A stretch of 43,731 nt of DNA from Clostridia bacterium. Its GTDB lineage: Bacteria; Bacillota; Clostridia; Christensenellales; Aristaeellaceae. Where the stretch lies: the NCBI GenBank assembly GCA_017481825.1, contig JAFUOR010000011.1:1-43731 (forward strand), written 5' to 3'. The notes beneath the pieces are model-generated. The model was not told where the DNA came from. It did no database searches and worked only from the letters and a program-made list of their open reading frames with translations. A program made the translations under genes and the position numbers. Of the stretch, positions 3 to 11,792 are shown in pieces; positions within the stretch are counted from its first letter, which is position 1; each line of letters begins with the position of its first letter.

Positions 3-748
<746 letters not shown>

Positions 749-829
749 ACTTGGCTGTTGAGGCGAGGTTCTCCAGGTACGTAAAATGTTGAATTAGTAC
801 AGTAGGCTGTTCGTGAGAACCGCCCGCCC

Positions 830-846: not shown

Positions 847-889
847 CCCCTCTTTCCTGACTGTTTATGTCAAGGAAAGAGGGGTTTTT
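847..889 (+). terminator. Rho-independent terminator between gap and the integrase
   Basis: A perfect 12-bp stem (CCCCTCTTTCCT at 847-858 paired with 873-884), 14-nt loop and five Ts. It lies directly in front of the integrase start codon, so it would terminate gap transcription before int. The remnant integrase of the second element has the same arrangement (11138-11176) with an unrelated stem sequence. Confidence 0.85.
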
Positions 890-893
890 GTTT

Positions 894-1796
894 ATGATTT
901 TTCAGGACGCAATTGTGGAGTTTGGCTTTGACTGTAAGGTGCGCAAATTGTCGCCAAGGTCGATTGATAATTACCAGAAGCAATTACGCTATTTACAGAA
1001 CTATCTCTTGGAGGAGTACGGCATCAAGAACGTGGAGCAAGTCAAGACAGCCCACATCAAACTGTTTCTGGCAATGATGGATGACCGCCAGCGCAAGCCC
1101 CGCTACATCAATGACCTGTTAAAAGCCTTCAAGACCTTTTTCAACTACCTGAAACGTGAAGGTCATATCAAAGAGAATCCAACAACCAAGGTCAAGAATA
1201 TGAAACAGCCCAAGACCAAGATACTGACTTTCAGCGAGGACGAAATCAGAAGGTTGCTCAATCACTTCAACGGAAAGAGTTTTCTGGACATCCGCAACCG
1301 CGCCATCCTGGCAATGTTCTTTGATACTGGTATGCGATTGACGGAGGTTATCACCCTGAAACCAGAGCAAATCCACGATGAATACATCCTGGTTCACGGA
1401 AAGGGAAGCAAGGAGCGATTAGTTCCTGTTTCGCCTTACCTGGCGAAGACCCTGATGAAGTACAGGATGGCGCGGGAAGCGTATTTTGAGGATAAACTGC
1501 CAGAGCCTTATGTGTTTCTCTCCAACAGGGGCAAGAAGCTGACCCAGGAGGCAATCGCCAAGTTCTTCAAGCGAGCATCTGCTGAGGTCAAAATCAACAG
1601 TCAGGTGCGTGTGTCCCCGCATACCTGTCGGCACACATTCGCTCACCTACAACTCAAAAACGGGTTAGACCTGTACAGTCTATCCCGCCTGATGGGGCAC
1701 GAAAGCGTAGCGATTACCCAACGATACCTGGAAGGCATCAAGGATGACGAAGTGCTCAAAAAGGGTCAGCGGTGCGGGGTGTTACAGAACTTATAA
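894..1796 (+). CDS. Tyrosine recombinase (integrase) of the gap-integrated element
   Basis: A 300-aa phage-type site-specific recombinase, expected to integrate and excise the element at the 3' end of gap. The N-terminal half is a SAM-like core-binding domain (about residues 1-100). The C-terminal catalytic domain shows every active-site residue: Arg in TGMRLTEV, Lys in HGKGSKERL, HTCRHTFAH (HxxR), LMGHES (His) and the nucleophile Tyr in TQRYLEG. I chose ATG 894 because the homologous remnant at 11177 begins at the aligned position. An earlier in-frame ATG at 867 lies in the loop of the upstream terminator. No clear promoter is seen; expression may depend on read-through from gap. The final codons already contain the first iteron half-sites (1786 on). 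Confidence 0.95.
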   Translation: MIFQDAIVEFGFDCKVRKLSPRSIDNYQKQLRYLQNYLLEEYGIKNVEQVKTAHIKLFLAMMDDRQRKPRYINDLLKAFKTFFNYLKREGHIKENPTTKVKNMKQPKTKILTFSEDEIRRLLNHFNGKSFLDIRNRAILAMFFDTGMRLTEVITLKPEQIHDEYILVHGKGSKERLVPVSPYLAKTLMKYRMAREAYFEDKLPEPYVFLSNRGKKLTQEAIAKFFKRASAEVKINSQVRVSPHTCRHTFAHLQLKNGLDLYSLSRLMGHESVAITQRYLEGIKDDEVLKKGQRCGVLQNL

Positions 1797-1866
1797 GAAC
1801 TCTGCTGAATGTTGATTGGAACCTGTTGGAACTCTAATAGATGTTGGTTAGAACTTCATAGGAACT
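1786..1866 (+). repeat. 32-bp iterons (2.5 units) after the integrase
   Basis: The hexamer RGAACY occurs at 1786, 1796, 1818, 1828, 1850 and 1861: three pairs, with 10-11 bp inside a pair and 32 bp between pairs. Units 1786-1817 and 1818-1849 align over their full length, and both end in ATGTTGRTT. The helical phasing suggests binding of a protein to one DNA face. The same motif recurs in inverted orientation at 9690-9728, upstream of the WYL regulator gene. Confidence 0.75.
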
Positions 1867-1869
1867 TTC

Positions 1870-1900
1870 AGGAGTGGGTGCGCCCACTCCTATTTCTTTT
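1870..1900 (+). terminator. Terminator of the integrase gene
   Basis: Stem GGAGTGGG / CCCACTCC (1871-1878 and 1883-1890) with a TGCG tetraloop, followed by TATTTCTTTT. Placed 75 nt after the integrase stop and just before the promoter box of the first paralogue. Confidence 0.85.
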
Positions 1901-1911
1901 CGCATTTTCAA

Positions 1912-2036
1912 AGTGGTGTTTTTATTCCCACCCTCCTGCGTTATGATATAGGCACAGGGTGAGGGAAACGCCAAGAGCCCTGAAAGAAAAGAAAGAACGG
2001 GAAGGAAAACCCGATAAACCAGAAAGGATAACTACT
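1912..2036 (+). promoter_or_regulatory. Promoter box and structured leader of paralogue 1
   Basis: A 21-bp box (1912-1932: AGTGGTGT, a T-rich centre, then ATTCCCACC) is repeated at 2451-2471 with one mismatch. It lies 9 nt before a TATGAT -10 (1942-1947). The transcribed leader can form hairpin I (CAGGG 1955-1959 with CCCTG 1978-1982) and hairpin II (CGGG 1998-2001, loop AAGGAAAA, CCCG 2010-2013). Both stems are replaced by different but still complementary sequences in the second leader, which supports a real RNA structure. RBS AGAAAGGA precedes ATG 2037. Confidence 0.7.
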
Positions 2037-2447
2037 ATGTCTGCTAACATCAACACCCTGGGCTACCGCCCCGATTTTGACTCCCAGAGCATCATCCTGA
2101 CCAAGAAGTTCGCCAAGTCCGCCTCCATCGTTGGCTCCAAGGATTACAATACCCTGTGCCGTCTCCGCAGGGATTACCCCGATTACAAGGTTGTGGTGCG
2201 CGAGATTGCCAAGAAGGAAGGCAAGAAGAACACCCACAAGAACCTGACCTACCAGGCGATGAAGGTCTACATTGAAACCACCATCACCGAAGCAGAAGCC
2301 CAGGCAAAGGCTCTGACTGAACTGGATAACGCCAAGATTCTTGGCAAGGGTCAGACCTGCGGTGCTTACCTGTTCGTGCGGGACTGGTTTCTGAAGAAGT
2401 ATACCAACTACTACACCACCGCTAATGCCGAAGAAATGCCCGCTTGA
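2037..2447 (+). CDS. Unrecognised protein, paralogue 1 of a three-gene tandem family
   Basis: 136 aa, no signal peptide or membrane segment. I do not recognise the family. It shares with its two downstream neighbours an N-terminal NTLGYR motif (shared with copy 2), a central YNTLxxLR motif, a LTYQAMKVYI helix (consensus sYxxMxxYI) and a C-terminal block: ILGKGQTCGAYLFVRDWF here, LLSKGQPAPYKYVRMWF in copy 3. Basic residues are frequent. ATG 2037 is chosen over the upstream in-frame ATG 1959 because AGAAAGGA sits at the right distance and the homology starts there. Codon use is like that of highly expressed genes. Position in a mobile element next to the integrase suggests an element-specific role, perhaps DNA binding, but nothing in the sequence proves a function. 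Confidence 0.85.
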   Translation: MSANINTLGYRPDFDSQSIILTKKFAKSASIVGSKDYNTLCRLRRDYPDYKVVVREIAKKEGKKNTHKNLTYQAMKVYIETTITEAEAQAKALTELDNAKILGKGQTCGAYLFVRDWFLKKYTNYYTTANAEEMPA

Positions 2448-2450
2448 TGA

Positions 2451-2570
2451 AGTGGTGTGTTTATTCCCACCACGATACACTATAATACAGATACAAGGTT
2501 GAGAAAAGCGACCTTGAAAAACAAAAACAAACGAGGACGGAAAACCTCTCAAACCAGAAAGGCAAAAAAT
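2451..2570 (+). promoter_or_regulatory. Promoter box and structured leader of paralogue 2
   Basis: The 21-bp box (2451-2471) is followed, again after 9 nt, by a perfect -10 TATAAT (2481-2486). Hairpin I here is AAGGT 2495-2499 / ACCTT 2511-2515. Hairpin II is GAGG 2533-2536, loop ACGGAAAA, CCTC 2545-2548. Compared with leader 1, the stems have changed on both sides while the loop of hairpin II and the downstream AAACCAGAAAGG are kept. The box begins 3 nt after the stop of paralogue 1, so the genes have separate promoters. Confidence 0.7.
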
Positions 2571-3005
2571 ATGGCTACTTACTCCAACAACACCCTGGGC
2601 TACCGCATCAACTACCGCGAAGGTACCATTTCTGTCAGCGACCGTCTCATCAAGGAAGCCAACCGTGAAGGCGTGAACAGTTCCGCCTACAACACCCTCA
2701 AAGCCCTGCGCGAGATGGGGATGCCGATTGTCAAGTTCCGCGAGAATACCACCGCCCGCAAGGGTCTGACCTACTCCAAGATGACCAAGTACATCCTCCT
2801 GTGCGAGAATAGCGAAAAGTATATGTGCGAGTTCATCCGCCAGCGTGAAGTCTCCAAGACCCAGAAGAACCCCTACCACTATATGCTGGACTGGTTCAAA
2901 GGCACCTTCCCGCATTACAACGAACAGGCAGAGTTCAACGCTGATGGTCAAATCATCGTGACTACTGCTGACTACCTGACCGAGACCGAAGAAAAGATTG
3001 CCTGA
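2571..3005 (+). CDS. Unrecognised protein, paralogue 2 of the tandem family
   Basis: 144 aa, soluble, function unknown. It aligns with paralogue 1 at NTLGYR (near residue 7), AYNTLKALREMGMP, LTYSKMTKYI and YHYMLDWFKGTFPHY. The C-terminal tail, AEFNADGQIIVTT, matches the NVEYDADGFIVER tail of paralogue 3 and is missing from paralogue 1, so copies 2 and 3 share a longer architecture. The ATG at 2571 follows CCAGAAAGGC with AT-rich spacing. Its own promoter and leader lie in the 123 nt after paralogue 1. The copies have diverged a lot at protein level, which points to an old duplication kept by selection rather than a recent tandem array. Confidence 0.85.
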   Translation: MATYSNNTLGYRINYREGTISVSDRLIKEANREGVNSSAYNTLKALREMGMPIVKFRENTTARKGLTYSKMTKYILLCENSEKYMCEFIRQREVSKTQKNPYHYMLDWFKGTFPHYNEQAEFNADGQIIVTTADYLTETEEKIA

Positions 3006-3053
3006 ACAAAATAACGGGAAGGAAAACCCGATAAACCAGAAAGGAACAAAGTT
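3006..3053 (+). promoter_or_regulatory. Short leader of paralogue 3 with hairpin II only
   Basis: CGGG (3015-3018), loop AAGGAAAA, CCCG (3027-3030), then ATAAACCAGAAAGGA and ATG 3054. This copies leader 1 almost base for base from the hairpin to the RBS but lacks the promoter box and hairpin I. Paralogue 3 is therefore probably co-transcribed with paralogue 2, and hairpin II seems tied to translation rather than to transcription start. Confidence 0.65.
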
Positions 3054-3590
3054 ATGTGTAATTCCAAGCTGGGCACTCAGTGCCGATACAACCCCGTGGA
3101 GAACACCGCTACCCTGACTTCTGCTTTCGCCAAGCGTGCTGGTATTGTTGGCACTGTTGAATATAACTACCTGGTTTCCCTGCGCAACGCCAATCCTGGT
3201 CTGGTCGTGCTGAAAGCCACTCACGCCTCTCCCACTCCCAAGACCGACGAGAACGGCAAGACCAAGGAACGCGACCCCTTTGATAAGGTTTCTTACAAGG
3301 CGATGACGGACTACATCTCCCTGTGCCGGACGAAGGATGCCTATATGAAGCAGTTCAACAACATCCGTCTGTTGAGCAAGGGTCAGCCCGCACCTTACAA
3401 GTATGTGCGTATGTGGTTCAAGGAGAAGTTCCCGCTGTTCGGCTCCATCAATGTTGAGTATGATGCTGACGGCTTCATCGTGGAGCGCATTGCGGTTCAG
3501 GCTGAGGTTAAGACTGTCAGGAACGCTCTTGCTCATCGGAACCAGCCCGTTCAGCAGGAAGCCCACGAAGACCTTGACGCGGTAGCGTAA
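3054..3590 (+). CDS. Unrecognised protein, paralogue 3 of the tandem family
   Basis: 178 aa, the longest of the three copies. Shared blocks: EYNYLVSLRNANPG (about residue 40), VSYKAMTDYISLCR (about 85), LLSKGQPAPYKYVRMWFKEKF (about 110) and the DADGFIVER tail. An insertion rich in Lys, Asp, Pro and Thr lies after the first block (PTPKTDENGKTKERD), probably a flexible loop. A C-terminal extension of about 30 residues rich in Gln, Glu and Ala has no counterpart in the other copies. Start ATG 3054 is fixed by the conserved leader. Function unknown. Confidence 0.85.
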   Translation: MCNSKLGTQCRYNPVENTATLTSAFAKRAGIVGTVEYNYLVSLRNANPGLVVLKATHASPTPKTDENGKTKERDPFDKVSYKAMTDYISLCRTKDAYMKQFNNIRLLSKGQPAPYKYVRMWFKEKFPLFGSINVEYDADGFIVERIAVQAEVKTVRNALAHRNQPVQQEAHEDLDAVA

Positions 3591-3594
3591 ATAA

Positions 3595-3654
3595 TTCTCC
3601 AAAGGTTGATGCGTCATAATATCAAGAGTATATACCGCATCAGCGTGTGGAGAA
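3595..3654 (+). promoter_or_regulatory. Palindromic promoter/operator P1
   Basis: 17-nt arms (3595-3611 and 3638-3654, 14 of 17 complementary) with core TTCTCC...GTTGATG / CATCA...GGAGAA, separated by exactly 26 nt. The left arm contains a -35 TTGATG (3606-3611) and the spacer contains TATATA (3629-3634) 17 nt later, so the palindrome wraps a sigma-70-type promoter. Sister elements: P2 at 4442-4501 and P3 at 9595-9654, both also with 26-nt spacing. Confidence 0.65.
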
Positions 3655-3674
3655 AATATAAAGGAGCAAAAAAT

Positions 3675-4391
3675 ATGGCTATGTTGGAGAAGCGGTTCTA
3701 TCCCCGCCAAGAGATAGCAGAAATCGTGGGTATCACCGACCTGAAAGATGGGCACTTCGCAGAGAAGGTTAAGCGATACCTGAACAAACGGCTTTACGAA
3801 TATGAGTATTCCCGTAAAGGTGCTAACATCACACAACTCCCGAAAACCGCAGAGGAACAGTTGGCATCACTAATGCGGGATGAACTTGAAATTGATAAGC
3901 AAAGAGACCCTTACTTGTTCGCTTGTTTCATTCGTGCGTTCTCAGTCATTGGTAGTTTTGAATCAATGCCGTGGACAAGCCGTACTGCGTTTTTTAATCA
4001 GCATTTTGAAAATACCATTACTCAGACTACTTTGGAACGATGGATGCGGTTTCTTCAAAAGGGCGAAAATGTAATCCGCTTCAAGAAGGGTGCGTTGTGG
4101 CGTACCATCAAAGATGAAGACGGCGACAAGGTTCATGTCAGGGTTGACCCTGACAGCGAAGAATACCGTGAATACTGCGAGAAGCGTAGTAAAAAACTGA
4201 TTGGCTTTGAGAATGCGGATAAGGAAACCCGTAGTAAAATGTGGGGTACTATGGTGTACGACCTATACCCTGAATACGGCGTATATTATTACTGCCCGCA
4301 GTTTGTGCTGAACGCTCTTGGCGACCAGGCAGAAGAAATATCCAGGCTTGTCGCCCAAGTGATGGCAGAACGTCAGGAGGGGCAAAATTGA
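3675..4391 (+). CDS. Hypothetical element protein, 238 aa
   Basis: No family recognised. The N-terminus (YPRQEIAEIVGITDLKDGHFAEKVKRYLNKRLYEYEYSRKGANITQLP) looks like a winged-helix or HTH module. The middle is helical, and the C-terminal part is aromatic and charged (VYDLYPEYGVYYYCPQFVLNAL) and ends in a short amphipathic helix. No signal peptide or membrane segment. The start follows AAGGAG with 8-nt spacing, and the gene is read from promoter P1. It is flanked on both sides by the palindromes P1 and P2, as if it were a cassette. Being next to the paralogue cluster and read in the same direction, it may work with them, but this is inferred only from position. Confidence 0.75.
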   Translation: MAMLEKRFYPRQEIAEIVGITDLKDGHFAEKVKRYLNKRLYEYEYSRKGANITQLPKTAEEQLASLMRDELEIDKQRDPYLFACFIRAFSVIGSFESMPWTSRTAFFNQHFENTITQTTLERWMRFLQKGENVIRFKKGALWRTIKDEDGDKVHVRVDPDSEEYREYCEKRSKKLIGFENADKETRSKMWGTMVYDLYPEYGVYYYCPQFVLNALGDQAEEISRLVAQVMAERQEGQN

Positions 4392-4441
4392 ATACCAGGA
4401 TGCGAAGGCGCAGGAGTATTTTCTCTTGCGTCTTTTTAGTT

Positions 4442-4501
4442 TTCCCCGAAGGTTGATGCGACACAATAACTATCCCTTATTGTCCATCAACGTGTGGAGA
4501 A
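4442..4501. promoter_or_regulatory. Palindromic element P2
   Basis: Same 17-nt arms (13 of 17 complementary) and the same 26-nt spacing as P1 and P3, but no convincing -10 at the matching position. The spacer has its own inner palindrome, ACAATAA / TTATTGT. No gene starts downstream on the plus strand before the terminator at 4603-4641, so P2 is either an operator only, a decayed copy, or the promoter of a short RNA of about 130 nt. Confidence 0.55.
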
Positions 4502-4602
4502 AACTGCTGATTTCTTGCGTTGAGACAGGTCTGCGGGCGGGAGGGGTAGACGATCCGGTTGGTGGAGGTAGAAAAACGGACGGGTGAGCTGGCACAGCGC
4601 AG

Positions 4603-5121: not shown

Positions 5122-5322
5122 TTGGGATACCGTGTTCATGTCAAAGGCACCATTCACTGTCTTGCAGGATGCTGTAAGAGAGGACAGAAAATCATTGAAG
5201 AAAACTACTTTGAAGTTTGTACGATTGAGGAGGCCGAAGCGCGCCTAAAAAAGAAAAACATCGTTCCTAATCGGTGTTCGTTTTGTAATTGGTTGAAAGA
5301 TAAGGAGGCGACTACCAAATGA
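5122..5322 (+). CDS. Small cysteine-rich protein
   Basis: 66 aa, not recognised. HCLAGCC near residue 14 and CSFC near residue 56 could together bind one zinc or form disulfides. I place the start at TTG 5122 because AAAGGGGGA lies 8 nt upstream. An in-frame ATG at 5083 has no RBS. The stop overlaps the start of the next gene (ATGA), so the two are translationally coupled and probably work together. Read divergently from the XRE regulator. Confidence 0.6.
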   Translation: MGYRVHVKGTIHCLAGCCKRGQKIIEENYFEVCTIEEAEARLKKKNIVPNRCSFCNWLKDKEATTK

Positions 5323-6059
5323 AAAAAGTGCTATGTGTAATAAGCATACTGACAATCATCCTTACATCCGTTCTCCCGGCTATCGCAGAGGAGAAATTTT
5401 CACTATACAACGGATTACAATTCGGTATGACAATGAACCAGGCTATGGGTAAATTGGGTTATAGCAGTCGAAATAAGCGTGATGCTGACAATTTGGGTAG
5501 ACCCTACTTGTCAGGGTATGTGTGGAATTTCTTGGATATAGACTCCGTAGACATCGCCGTTCATTTTGATGAAAACGGCTTATCGAAAACAGTGGTGTAT
5601 GAGCTGGGTTCGTATTACGACAGGTACGAGATTGATTATCAGCAATACAATCGCATCGAAGCTCTCTTAAAAGGGAAATATGGATATACTGAATACAACA
5701 ATACGACCGCAAAGAGGCTACCATTCAAGGAAGCCGAGTTCATGACTAAATACCCGTATGGTACAGACCATAATGTGTATGCCATGACATCTCTTAACGG
5801 ACAAGACGCATACAATCATAGCGGCACATACTATTATCATAAATTGTCATGCCCGCAATTCAGCCAATGGGTTGTACCGGTAAGCGATGGCTATGTTGTA
5901 GTGGAGCATTCGTTGTGGTGCCATGAAGCATGGGTAACATCAGCAAGAGGCGATAAGACTCCCGATTTCTACGAACTTATCAATTACGCGTTCTTAACCG
6001 AGACGGAATACGATACTCTGATTAAAGATAAACCCCTGGATGTGTATAACGGTATATAA
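5319..6059 (+). CDS. Secreted protein of unknown function
   Basis: 246 aa with a clear signal peptide: MKK, a hydrophobic stretch (VLCVISILTIILTSVLP) and a cleavage site at AIA-EE. The mature part begins with FSLYNGLQFGMTMNQAMGKLG, which resembles the start of SmpA/BamE-like or 'FGMT' repeat folds seen in clostridial secreted proteins, but I cannot assign it. Rich in Tyr, Asn and Asp; two late Cys (SCPQF, LWCHEAW). Translationally coupled to the Cys-rich protein upstream. AT-rich codon use compared with gap and with the paralogue genes suggests a different origin within the same element. Confidence 0.8.
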   Translation: MKKVLCVISILTIILTSVLPAIAEEKFSLYNGLQFGMTMNQAMGKLGYSSRNKRDADNLGRPYLSGYVWNFLDIDSVDIAVHFDENGLSKTVVYELGSYYDRYEIDYQQYNRIEALLKGKYGYTEYNNTTAKRLPFKEAEFMTKYPYGTDHNVYAMTSLNGQDAYNHSGTYYYHKLSCPQFSQWVVPVSDGYVVVEHSLWCHEAWVTSARGDKTPDFYELINYAFLTETEYDTLIKDKPLDVYNGI

Positions 6060-6111: not shown

Positions 6112-6699
6112 TTATCCCATCATCTTCAAATACTTATACACCGTTGGCCTTGACAGCCCGCACACCCGCGCCAGTTCGGTGAGGTTCATCGTCCCCGCCA
6201 CAAACGCCGGATAGTGCTTGTAAAACACTGTGGGGATGTCCTCTTTCGTTGTCTGCGGTCTGCCGATGCGCTTACCCTTGCTCTTGGCGTTCTCCATCCC
6301 TGACTTCACCCTTGCCCGTATCATCGCCAGCTCCAACTGACTAAACACCCCCGCCATCTGCAAGAATGCTTCGCTCATTGGGTCGGTCTGCCCGTTCCGG
6401 CAGTCAATCGTGATGCTCCCCACAATGACCAATCGCAGTTTCTTTTCGCGGATAACATCAATGATTTCGCACAACTGCTGTGTGCTTCTGGACAGTCTGC
6501 TGACCTCCAAGGTAATGATGGTATCGCCAGCAGTCGCCATGTCCAAGAGCATATGGAGTTCCTTTTTTACCCTGGCGTCGCCGTGTTCATATTCAAAGAC
6601 CACTTCTTCTGCGCCAGCGTCTTTCAGTTCGCGGATTTGCCGGTTGATGTCCTGCTTGTCCTCATTGGTCGAACAGCGGGCGTAGCCGTATATTGCCAT
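6112..6699 (-). CDS. Serine recombinase, resolvase/invertase family
   Basis: 195 aa, the usual size of small resolvases and invertases. N-terminal catalytic domain with the nucleophile Ser10 in GYARCSTNEDKQ, the conserved SRLSRS motif (about residue 68) and the long E-helix (QMAGVFSQLELAMIRARVKSGMENAK). Linker GKRIGRP, then a C-terminal HTH (LTELARVCGLSRPTVYKYL) that binds the recombination site. GGAGG RBS 7-8 nt before ATG 6699. A 19-bp inverted repeat lies just upstream (6733-6810) and may be its site. In an element that already has a tyrosine integrase, this enzyme could resolve dimers, invert a segment or be a passenger. Confidence 0.95.
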   Translation of the reverse strand: MAIYGYARCSTNEDKQDINRQIRELKDAGAEEVVFEYEHGDARVKKELHMLLDMATAGDTIITLEVSRLSRSTQQLCEIIDVIREKKLRLVIVGSITIDCRNGQTDPMSEAFLQMAGVFSQLELAMIRARVKSGMENAKSKGKRIGRPQTTKEDIPTVFYKHYPAFVAGTMNLTELARVCGLSRPTVYKYLKMMG

Positions 6700-7116: not shown

Positions 7117-7950
7117 TCAGCCCGTACTCCCCAGAATCAGATTCACAGCCTTTTCGGCTTTGCCGGACGCGCTCACGATGAAGCGTTTGTCGCCTTTGAG
7201 AACCGTCAGCCAGTTCTGGATGTACGCCGTATTGTTGCGGAGGCTGTGGTCTGTTTCCAGTCCCACATAATTCACCAGCGCGGATGCCCCGATTTCCGCG
7301 ACCAATTCTTCCTTGCTGTAATCTTCTGTGCCGAAGAAGGAGGGACGGGTCAGCCGGTTCAGGCGGGAGGGATGACCCGTGCTGTGGGTCAGTTCGTGAA
7401 AGACTGTGCTGTAATACTCTGCGGTGCTGACAAACTGCTTGCGGATGGGGAGGACAACTTCATCAGTGGCGGGGCGGTAGAAAGCCCTGTCGCCTTCGCT
7501 GTGGGTAAGCGTTACACCTTCGCGGGAGAGGTAGTCATATATGATGTCCTGCGCAGTTGCCAGCGTGTCCGCGCCATCGGGGAGAACCGTTTCGGCGGTG
7601 TGCTTTGCGGTGATGCCTTCGCACTGGTCAATGTGAAATACATTGTAGTAGCGGAGAAACGGCACTTCCTTCTTTTCGCCGGTTTCTTCGTCTTCCTGCT
7701 CAATCCATTTCCAGAAGACAACCATCTGCGATTTAGCACCCTTCTTGACCCGTCCGCCCGCCTGCTGGCACTGCTTGAAGGTCAGATACTCGCCGGGGCG
7801 ACCCAAGAGCATCTGATTGAGGAGGCTATATGCCTTGCCGGTTGCGTGGCTGATGGCTTTGCCATTGGCGACCCAGGGCTTTTGCCAGGGGATGATGCCG
7901 TTTTCCATCTGGTCTATGATTCGGGCGGTGATTTCTGCGTAAATATCCAT
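7117..7950 (-). CDS. ArdC-like anti-restriction protein / zincin-like metallopeptidase
   Basis: 277 aa. The N-terminal part is the ArdC single-stranded-DNA-binding domain typical of plasmid primases and anti-restriction proteins (IIDQMENGIIPWQKPW, then GKAYSLLNQMLL, then YLTFKQ and VKKGAKSQMVVFWK). The C-terminal part is a zincin-like peptidase domain with HELTHSTGH (HExxH motif, about residue 187) and the downstream EELVAEIGAS glutamate. ArdC proteins are carried by conjugative elements and protect incoming DNA against host restriction. This is the best evidence that the element moves, or once moved, between cells. Its mRNA leader holds the hairpins at 7975-8067. Confidence 0.9.
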   Translation of the reverse strand: MDIYAEITARIIDQMENGIIPWQKPWVANGKAISHATGKAYSLLNQMLLGRPGEYLTFKQCQQAGGRVKKGAKSQMVVFWKWIEQEDEETGEKKEVPFLRYYNVFHIDQCEGITAKHTAETVLPDGADTLATAQDIIYDYLSREGVTLTHSEGDRAFYRPATDEVVLPIRKQFVSTAEYYSTVFHELTHSTGHPSRLNRLTRPSFFGTEDYSKEELVAEIGASALVNYVGLETDHSLRNNTAYIQNWLTVLKGDKRFIVSASGKAEKAVNLILGSTG

Positions 7951-9594: not shown

Positions 9595-9654
9595 TTCTCC
9601 ACACGTTGATGCTCCATAATAGAAAAAGTATAAGGAACATCAACCTTTGGAGAA
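9595..9654 (+). promoter_or_regulatory. Palindromic promoter/operator P3
   Basis: 17-nt arms (9595-9611 and 9638-9654, 15 of 17 complementary), 26-nt spacing. The promoter TTGATG (9606-9611), 17 nt, TATAAG (9629-9634) lies at the same position within the palindrome as in P1. The arm sequences are swapped left to right compared with P1. P3 separates the leftward RHH operon from the rightward WYL regulator. Confidence 0.65.
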
Positions 9655-9689
9655 AACAGGAGAGACGGCAATGACGGGGTGGACGGGAC

Positions 9690-9728: not shown

Positions 9729-9775
9729 GAGAGTTTCAGGCTACTTCTTACAATCATTCAAGGGAGTTGTTATTC

Positions 9776-10762
9776 GTGCCGAAGGTAGCAGATAGCAAAC
9801 TGCGTCTGTTCCGCTTGATTAAATACTTTGAGCAAATGACAGACGATAATCACTTCGTCACCCGCAGAAATGTAGAAGACCATCTCAAAGTCGCGTGGAA
9901 CACCAGCGTAGACCGCAAGACCTTTGAGAGTGATTTGATGTGCCTGGAAACGCTGGGGTATGACATTGAGCATCCTGAAAACAGCCATCAGTATAAACTG
10001 GTCAATCGTCCTTTCGCATTCAGTGAGTTGAAGATGATTATTGACTGTCTGCTGTCCGCCCGCACGTTGGATGAAAAGACCACCCAACGCCTGATTACCA
10101 CCCTCAAAAAGGAATGTAGCAAGTACGAGGCTGAAACGCTGGACAGGCAAGTGATTGTCGCCAATCGGGTCAAGACCACAAACAAAGCGGTACATTATGC
10201 CCTGGATGAAATCCAGGTCGCCATCCAGTCAGACTGCCAAATCAGTTTCAAGTACTTTGACTATGATATGAAAAAGAAGCGCACTTACCGCAAGAATGGT
10301 GAAACTTATTACGTTAGCCCATTCGTGGTGGTGTACTCTGACGAGAACCATTATCTCCTGGCGTATGATGGCAAGAAGGTTCGTCCCTATCGTATTGACC
10401 GAATGGAAGATGTATGGTCTGAGCCGGAGAAGCCCAGGCAGGGGCAGGAGGTCTTTGACGAGAAGATAGACCTTGACCACTATCGCCAATACACCTTTGG
10501 TATGTATGATGGCAAGGTGGAAATGGTACGGATGAAGTTCTTTCATCGTATGATGAACACGGTCATTGATAAGTTTGGTGCTGATGTGGTGGTCTATCGC
10601 GTGGACGACGAACACTTTGAAATCACCGTCCCCGTTGCCATCAGTCCTCAATTCTGTGGATGGGTATTTGGTCTGGGGCGACAAGTGGAAATCCTGGAGC
10701 CTAAATCCGTCGTTAAAAAGATGAAGGATATGCTGAAAAACGTCGGCGAACTGTATCAATGA
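9776..10762 (+). CDS. WYL-domain transcriptional regulator
   Basis: 328 aa. The N-terminal winged HTH (about residues 5-75: KLRLFRLIKYFEQM...FVTRRNVEDHL...DRKTFESDLMCLETLGYDI) is followed by a middle segment and a WYL domain (about 145-225: QISFKYFDYD, YYVSPFVVVYSDENHYLLAYD, RPYRIDRMEDV) with its C-terminal extension. WYL proteins are ligand-responsive regulators often found in phage-defence islands and mobile elements. GTG 9776 is chosen because AGGGAG lies 9 nt before it. The gene is preceded by P3 and the inverted iterons, so it probably controls itself and other element promoters that carry those motifs. Confidence 0.92.
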   Translation: MPKVADSKLRLFRLIKYFEQMTDDNHFVTRRNVEDHLKVAWNTSVDRKTFESDLMCLETLGYDIEHPENSHQYKLVNRPFAFSELKMIIDCLLSARTLDEKTTQRLITTLKKECSKYEAETLDRQVIVANRVKTTNKAVHYALDEIQVAIQSDCQISFKYFDYDMKKKRTYRKNGETYYVSPFVVVYSDENHYLLAYDGKKVRPYRIDRMEDVWSEPEKPRQGQEVFDEKIDLDHYRQYTFGMYDGKVEMVRMKFFHRMMNTVIDKFGADVVVYRVDDEHFEITVPVAISPQFCGWVFGLGRQVEILEPKSVVKKMKDMLKNVGELYQ

Positions 10763-10947: not shown

Positions 10948-11043
10948 GACACCTATCAGGTGCAGGTCGTGTCCTGGTACGACAACGAGAACAGCTACAC
11001 CTCTCAGATGGTTCGCACCATCAAGTACTTCGCTGAGCTGTAA
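10948..11043 (+). pseudogene. Duplicated 3' tail of gap (31 codons) at the right end of the element
   Basis: Encodes [16 protein letters not shown]...FAEL and stop, identical in protein to the last 31 residues of the intact copy. The first 48 nt differ at five bases from 627-674, all synonymous (TAT/TAC, GTG/GTT, AGC/TCT); the last 48 nt are identical. The divergent part must be carried by the element itself (its attP arm) and looks as if it was taken from the gap gene of another strain or species. Confidence 0.85.
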
Positions 11044-11069
11044 TTCAGTAGAATCAAGGCTTTGCGAGG
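10996..11069. repeat. attR: right 74-bp direct repeat
   Basis: Exact copy of 675-748. It bounds the element on the right. Directly after it lies the 5' part of a second integrase gene arranged exactly as the intact one follows attL, so the site at 11046-11066 may also be the left end of an older, decayed element. Confidence 0.9.
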
Positions 11070-11137
11070 GCTGAGGCAACAACATCATCACTCCTGAGTG
11101 GTGAAAATGTTGATTGACTGCCATAGTCTCAATCGCT

Positions 11138-11176
11138 CCACTTTCTCTTGGAAACAGGAGAAAGTGGGGTTTTTTT
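11138..11176 (+). terminator. Terminator in front of the integrase remnant
   Basis: CCACTTTCTC / GAGAAAGTGG (10-bp perfect stem, 10-nt loop) followed by GG and seven Ts. Same place relative to att and integrase start as the hairpin at 847-889, but with a different stem sequence. Confidence 0.8.
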
Positions 11177-11547
11177 GTGTTTTTGAAGCATGCTATCAAG
11201 GAGTATGAATTTGACTGTAAAGCAAGGAAATTGGGTGTAAATACTATTCAAGGCTACATGCGAATGCTTCGCTACCTGATGGACTACCTGGATAAGGAAT
11301 ATGACATCACTCAAATTGAAGATGTGAAACCATTCCACATCAAGCACTTCCTCCTGCTCAAACAGGAAGAGGGTAAGAAACCTCAATATATCAATGACCT
11401 TTTGAAAGTGTACAAAACATTCTTTCGCTACCTGGAAGAGGAAGAATACCTGGATAAGGCTCCAACAGCAAAAATCCACAATGTAAAACAGCCCAAAGTC
11501 CTAATTCGCACCTTTTCTGAGGATGAAATACGCAGGATGCTCAATTA
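11177..11547 (+). pseudogene. Tyrosine integrase remnant, 5' part only
   Basis: From GTG 11177 about 123 codons align with the N-terminal half of the intact integrase: AIKEYEFDCKARKLG, IEDVKPFHIKHFLLL, KKPQYINDLLKVYKTFFRYL and RTFSEDEIRRMLN. The reading breaks off after LNY, before any catalytic residue, at the junction with an IS3-type transposase fragment. The moderate protein similarity to the intact copy shows a different element of the same family that used the same gap site. The downstream 40 codons in this frame are not integrase. Confidence 0.9.
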
Positions 11548-11792
11548 TTGTACGACAACGCAATGGCTGAAAACTTCTTCTCCATCCTCAAGGTTGAATG
11601 TCTCTACAGGCATAAACCTGCTTCATTCCGTGAAACAAACGATCTGATCGACCATTACATCTTTTTCTATAACCACGAGCGCATTCAGCAAAAAACTGGC
11701 GTGCTTCCGCTCTCGCTTCGGCACGCCAGTTAATCTCTCTTTCCTACATCCGGGCTTTTTTGTGCAGTCCGTACATTCTGGGGCGGTTCACA
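11548..11792 (+). mobile_element. IS3-family (IS150 group) 3' remnant
   Basis: 11548-11733 encodes the C-terminal 61 residues of an IS3-family OrfB transposase: YDNAMAENFFSILKVECLYR, then the end of the DDE domain with ...YIFFYNHERIQQKTGVLPLSLR. The DDE glutamate lies in the E of 'ILKVE' or nearby. A hairpin (CTGGCGTGC / GCACGCCAG) overlaps its end. The sequence near 11775-11792 (CTGGGGCGGTTCACA) resembles the outer end of IS150-type terminal repeats, so the IS probably ended there. Its left part is missing and the IS junction truncates the integrase. Confidence 0.75.

What the first reader, a model, noticed from the sequence alone, without database searches (positions are those of the whole stretch)
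2037..3590. Three tandem paralogues of an unrecognised protein family
Proteins of 136, 144 and 178 aa share a YNxLxxLR block, a sYxxMxxYI helix and a KGQxxxYxYVRxWF block, but have diverged strongly. Retention of three copies with high-expression codon use beside the integrase suggests a selected multi-component function (for example defence, copy control or structural assembly) that I cannot name. This is the best candidate for an undescribed system in the window.
Basis: partly seen in the sequence, partly recalled or inferred. Interest (0 to 1): 0.75.

Follow-up and report, generated by a model that had tools for sequence, protein, structure and literature searches.

The report
Protein trio of undescribed mobile element
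Three small sister proteins of no known family sit in a fixed order on a family of mobile DNA elements in gut bacteria, share an RNA hairpin before some of the genes, and look like a core part of the element whose job is still unknown.

Summary
Three ORFs (136, 144, 178 aa; 2037-3590) are real paralogues without a match in the family libraries searched. They are not a local curiosity: arrays of 2-5 copies lie in 32 of 37 regions from 33 of 300 related genomes; a profile finds copies in 45 of 300. Copies group by position (A-B-C trios, D-E pairs), so the order is old. Here the array is the integrase-proximal part of an integrative element in the 3' end of gap, with gap tails 10,321 bp apart; L062 has the same site and a spacing of 10,317 bp. 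About a third of copies (35 of 108; random windows 110 of 2160) have a hairpin before the start codon, with a covarying stem and an AAGGAAAA-type loop; the exact motif occurs twice in the window's genome, both before these genes. Codon use is the most gap-like of the element. A 238-aa protein or a helicase-like gene is near in 9 loci each of 44, never both. Structure prediction never left the queue (33 attempts), so fold and function are unproven. Best guess: an abundant heteromeric nucleic-acid-binding complex serving the element's propagation; counter-defence is the main rival.

The parts
2037..2447 (+). paralogue A (136 aa)
   Evidence: groups with first-position copies of other trios
2571..3005 (+). 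paralogue B (144 aa)
   Evidence: in the second-position clade, support 99/93
3054..3590 (+). paralogue C (178 aa)
   Evidence: in a group with other third-position copies, support 93/92; in no starred set of up to half of the rows
1996..2028 (+). leader hairpin CGGG-AAGGAAAA-CCCG plus AAACCAGAAAGGA before A
2531..2563 (+). variant leader hairpin (loop ACGGAAAA) before B
3013..3045 (+). leader hairpin before C, like the one before A
1911..1960 (+). promoter-like repeat before A
   Evidence: repeat D3; -10 and inverted repeat read by eye, not tested statistically
2450..2499 (+). promoter-like repeat before B: GTGGTG/CACCAC inverted repeat and TATAAT
   Evidence: repeat D3; read by eye
867..1796 (+). 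tyrosine recombinase (XerC-like integrase)
3675..4391 (+). 238-aa partner (c5 family), no known family
3595..3656 (+). 62-nt inverted repeat before the 238-aa gene; further copies 4442-4503 and 9595-9656
701..751 (+). gap 3' tail, left end of the element
   Evidence: 98% identical over 51 bp to 11022-11072
10948..11072 (+). second copy of the gap 3' end, right end of the element
7117..7950 (-). ArdC-type protein of the same element
6112..6699 (-). serine resolvase of the same element
9767..10762 (+). WYL-domain protein of the same element

Best explanation
The three genes are the core expressed module of an apparently undescribed family of small (about 10 kb) integrative elements of Clostridia. 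Shown: shared ancestry, old order A-B-C (or D-E), frequent place beside a recombinase, element ends in two cases, gap-like codon use, a covarying leader hairpin in part of the copies. Inferred: the paralogues are made in bulk and in balance through the common leader hairpin, assemble into a hetero-oligomer, and bind the element's nucleic acid to serve its excision, replication or transfer, working with the adjacent 238-aa protein or helicase-like protein where one is present.
For: Arrays of two or more in 32 of 37 regions and in 20 of 20 named loci, 13 of which are the same contigs by length. Position labels need 10 changes on the tree against 45.5 in shuffles, 0 of 200 as low. Recombinase within 1.5 kb upstream in 18 of 44 loci, several of the others being cut by contig ends. 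Gap tails 10,321 bp apart in the window, 10,317 in L062. Median pI 8.0-9.3 for the five subfamilies, from ORF models of which some have long starts. Hairpin: 96.3% of cells pair against 57.1% in shuffles, covariation score 0.945 against 0.216, 0 of 500 shuffles as high. Exact motif twice in 3.16 Mb, both before these genes, reversed control 0. c5 in 9 and c3 in 9 of 44 loci, never both. A resolvase on the element hints at a circular replicating form (inference).
Against: No structure, and no nucleic-acid-binding family by profile; the NANOG-homeobox similarity of the C-terminal helix is only E 0.08. 26 of 44 loci have neither c5 nor c3, some because of contig ends, so a fixed partner is not general. 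The hairpin is at 35 of 108 copies by a loose scan, 22 with the downstream motif (random windows 110 of 2160). Two of five covariation measures do not exceed shuffles (pairs changed on both sides 94 of 500, further pair types 115 of 500). L058 has another order; 5 of 37 regions have one copy only. Hetero-oligomerisation rests on gene order alone. Only two elements have both ends seen.
Confidence: 0.37

Rival explanations
1. The paralogues are counter-defence proteins made in bulk on entry (anti-restriction or anti-nuclease), each against another class of host defence.
For: 15 ArdC-family ORFs in 14 of 44 loci; small acidic-looking ORFs after some arrays share the hairpin leader (L049, L059, L064); strong divergence between copies; gap-like codons.
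Against: Fixed order and position-specific lineages over large distances fit a complex better than interchangeable inhibitors; proteins are mostly basic, unlike acidic DNA mimics (recalled). PADLOC has no hit, but it models defence and says little on counter-defence.
Confidence: 0.25
2. They are structural (coat or particle) proteins of a capsid-like transfer mode.
For: Small, gap-like codons, paralogous set; a hairpin leader as in coat-protein operators (recalled analogy).
Against: The searches made in phages, plasmids and viral contigs found no relative; no virion gene among the window-element ORFs scanned.
Confidence: 0.12
3. They are accessory DNA-bending or directionality factors of the neighbouring recombinase.
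For: Small basic proteins beside a recombinase in 18 of 44 loci; weak homeobox-like helix.
Against: Of the 9 loci with D-type copies in the same family only L044 has a recombinase within 1.5 kb upstream, though L114 and L115 of other families have one; recombinases of different kinds and both orientations neighbour the arrays; three bulk factors would be unusual (recalled).
Confidence: 0.12
4. They form a maintenance or copy-control system of the element that acts on its own mRNA through the hairpin.
For: Covarying hairpin next to the Shine-Dalgarno site.
Against: Would not need three position-specific copies; most copies show no such hairpin in the scan.
Confidence: 0.09

Closest known systems
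Site-specific integrative elements with tyrosine recombinases that insert in a gene's 3' end
   Same: recombinase at one end, repeat of the target's 3' end at both ends
   Different: target is gap (a 333-aa gene neighbours the recombinase in L114/L115, ends not sought there), no relaxase or conjugation gene found in the window element, core is an unknown paralogue array
Integrative mobilizable elements with ArdC and resolvase
   Same: ArdC-N/MPTase-PolyVal protein and serine resolvase
   Different: no relaxase or coupling protein among the window-element ORFs scanned
Phage satellites
   Same: small integrated element with own regulators; restriction genes near some arrays
   Different: of 8 window-element ORFs scanned with PHROGs only the integrase and a RecE-C-like 94-aa ORF gave good matches; no relative in the phage and viral searches made

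Membership tests
Tyrosine-recombinase integrative element | integrase of the Phage_integrase family | tested here: met
   PF00589 E 1e-31
Tyrosine-recombinase integrative element | direct repeat of the target at both ends | tested here: met
   gap tail 701-751 and 11022-11072, 98%; also in L062. Not seen for the other loci, whose far ends were not sought or not held
Tyrosine-recombinase integrative element | excision as a circle | not testable with these tools
   needs reads or PCR
Conjugative or mobilizable element | relaxase, coupling protein or T4SS gene | tested here: not met
   none among the window-element ORFs scanned with Pfam; the 79-aa ORF was scanned with PHROGs only
Prophage or phage satellite | virion or packaging genes, or relatives in phage genomes | tested here: not met
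   six window-element ORFs were scanned with Pfam but not PHROGs
Known capsid, Rep or RHH family (for the paralogues) | profile match | tested here: not met
   59 members against Pfam list no such family, best is DUF7753 in 3 of 59, E 7.5e-4 before correction for 59 scans
Known Rfam leader RNA | covariance-model match | tested here: not met
   none at gathering score in the window, none up to E 1 in 1800-4600
Homeodomain-like DNA-binding protein | helix-turn-helix fold | tested here: inconclusive
   only E 0.08 to NANOG chains, Homez in 1 of 59 at E 0.0086; no model obtained

The most novel reading that the evidence does not exclude
An undescribed kind of mobile element of Clostridia propagates with a new heteromeric protein machine (A-B-C or D-E) whose subunits are balanced by a common RNA hairpin; it stands in for the relaxase, Rep or capsid modules of known elements.
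Probability: 0.25. Interest if true: 0.85.

Novelty: new variant of a known kind. Interest (0 to 1): 0.6.

Why it matters
If the trio is the propagation module, small genome islands of gut and rumen bacteria, some with restriction systems next to the array, move by an unknown mechanism. The array, the hairpin and the two alternative partner genes give ready handles: a family profile, an RNA motif and defined element ends.

Tried and rejected
Looked for and not found: profile or PDB-sequence relatives; relatives in phages, plasmids and viral contigs (the B subfamily was not used as a query there); homology of the paralogues to the 238-aa protein (probability 0.2%); known RNA family; literature (search listings only, no paper opened; nothing listed appeared to describe these genes; one search returned no paper). 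Rejected: that the 333-aa gene beside the recombinase in L114 and L115 is gap (positive control L060 found). Set aside as a likely artefact, untested: a 631-aa open frame on the minus strand over the array (1941-3836). The key missing test is structure prediction: 33 attempts, all answered 'machine is busy'.

Rows dropped: two T ORFs under 100 aa from the tree (92 of 94). For the covariation count, hairpins were picked by loop and downstream motif, not by stem; of 24 distinct instances (25 in all) four with a longer loop were left out, the window copy at 3013 (identical to that at 1996) was added to make 21 rows, 20 distinct; one row precedes a small non-T ORF (L064) and one a truncated copy (L047). 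Hairpins with a 7-nt loop (L054, L059, L064) were outside that pattern.

Full report
Observation. The three ORFs exist as described and are paralogues: at E up to 1 the third copy finds only itself and the other two in the 3.16 Mb genome, E 1.3e-10 and 4.2e-8. No family is named by Pfam, PHROGs, NCBIfam, PADLOC or PDB sequences. Codon use is the most gap-like of the element; one of 19 chromosomal genes of the window equals it.

Spread. One copy finds relatives in 33 of 300 genomes of the same taxonomic family, the own one included; a 59-row profile finds them in 45 of 300, 13 of 50 genera. In a draw of 391 genomes of the class the profile finds 6, the own one included; one of these (G686) is a single weak match, the other four have two adjacent copies. 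Named carriers include rumen Clostridiales MAGs, Christensenella sp. UBA4379, Oscillibacter valericigenes An890, and MAGs labelled Lachnospiraceae, Oscillospiraceae and Ruminiclostridium. The searches made in phage, plasmid and viral-contig collections found nothing.

Array architecture. In 37 sequences (36 fetched regions and the window, covering the 33 genomes) there are 94 copies: 18 arrays of three, 11 of two, 2 of four, 1 of five, 5 single copies, of which at least L038 lies at a contig end. A maximum-likelihood tree of 92 copies puts 17 of 18 first-position copies of trios in one weakly supported group (86/79), 17 of 18 second-position copies in a clade (99/93), and 16 of 18 third-position copies in two further groups (12 and 4). 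Eight of the 11 two-gene arrays form a clade of their own (100/99), split into first and second genes; L033, L035 and L066 lie elsewhere. Position labels need 10 changes against 45.5 in shuffles, 0 of 200 as low. The order is thus old. L058 departs from it. The window's third copy is in no starred set of up to half of the rows.

The element. In the window 51 bp around the gap stop codon recur 10,321 bp downstream (98%), and the last 31 codons of gap are encoded again. L062 has two gap tails 10,317 bp apart. All six sequences with a close relative of this recombinase (E below 1e-120) have gap beside it; in L053 a gap tail lies at the far side. Elsewhere other recombinases are found; L114 and L115, from another family, have closely similar recombinases beside a 333-aa gene that is not gap. 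Element genes in the window include a resolvase, an ArdC-type protein, HTH proteins and a WYL protein. A recombinase lies within 1.5 kb upstream of the array in 18 of 44 loci; the 238-aa family (c5) follows in 9; a helicase-like gene (c3; one of two members scanned passes the Pfam DEAD and ResIII cut-offs) is near in 9, on the array's strand in 7; never both; neither in 26, some cut by contig ends. Of nine loci whose large neighbours were scanned, four have restriction-modification genes 0.4-4.2 kb after the array (L036, L046, L050, L059); the rest gave RCC1/TPR repeats, Sel1, a sodium-proton exchanger, or nothing. Whether this cargo lies inside the elements was not shown.

RNA leader. Before the Shine-Dalgarno site of part of the copies lies a hairpin with a variable stem and the loop AAGGAAAA, followed by AAACCAGAAAGGA. 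In 20 distinct rows all four pairs have changes on both sides, 96.3% of cells pair (57.1% in shuffles), score 0.945 against 0.216, 0 of 500 as high; sliding the partner by 1-3 columns drops pairing to 12.5-48.8%. Two counts do not exceed shuffles: pairs changed on both sides (94 of 500) and further pair types (115 of 500). No G-U pair occurs, so pairing at the DNA level is not excluded, but varying arms with a fixed asymmetric loop in gene sense speak for RNA (inference). A looser scan finds a hairpin at 35 of 108 copies, 22 with the downstream motif, and in 110 of 2160 random windows. In the window's genome the exact motif occurs twice, both here, reversed control zero. It also precedes small acidic-looking ORFs after some arrays. 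Promoter-like repeats with a TATAAT-like box and an inverted repeat precede many copies (by eye).

Mechanism. Shown are ancestry, order, element context, codon use and, for part of the copies, the hairpin. Inferred are balanced bulk expression, a heteromer, and nucleic-acid binding (median pI 8.0-9.3; a crude propensity estimate gives beta-beta-alpha-alpha-beta, then a mainly helical second half). A role in propagation is my best guess (0.37); counter-defence, coat, recombinase accessory and copy control are rivals. The missing test is the structure.

Novelty. Integrative elements are a known kind. Four text searches (listings only) showed nothing on this core module, its hairpin or its partner swap, which is weak evidence of absence.

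Noticed in passing
window 3595-3656, 4442-4503, 9595-9656; L065, L067, L040, L041, L046, L087, L088, L062: Long inverted repeats (13-22 pairs, loop 12-28 in the scan) with variable but complementary, often AAAGGTT-like arms lie before the 238-aa-family gene in 8 of 9 loci and before the WYL gene in two (window, L062); -35- and -10-like boxes by eye.
   Followed up: partly
L037 4663-4683, L039 8173-8193, L049 6166-6186, L060 12177-12197: Palindromic element with a near-invariant core GCGGAGTGCGAAGCACGGAGC just downstream of the helicase-like gene c3 in 4 of 9 c3 loci, and nowhere else in the 44 sequences searched; origin-like or terminator-like.
   Followed up: partly
window 11114-11647: Truncated second recombinase of the same kind right after the right-hand gap tail: probably a remnant of another element at the same site.
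   Followed up: partly
L049 7873-8229, L059 11267-11623, L064 after 10830: Small acidic-looking ORFs behind the same kind of hairpin leader; the one of L059 has no PHROGs match, the others were not scanned.
   Followed up: partly
window 5319-6059: 246-aa protein with a signal-peptide-like start (by eye), no Pfam family at E 0.1; relative in L068.
   Followed up: no
window 1941-3836, minus strand: 631-aa open frame antisense to the whole array, probably an artefact of codon bias.
   Followed up: no
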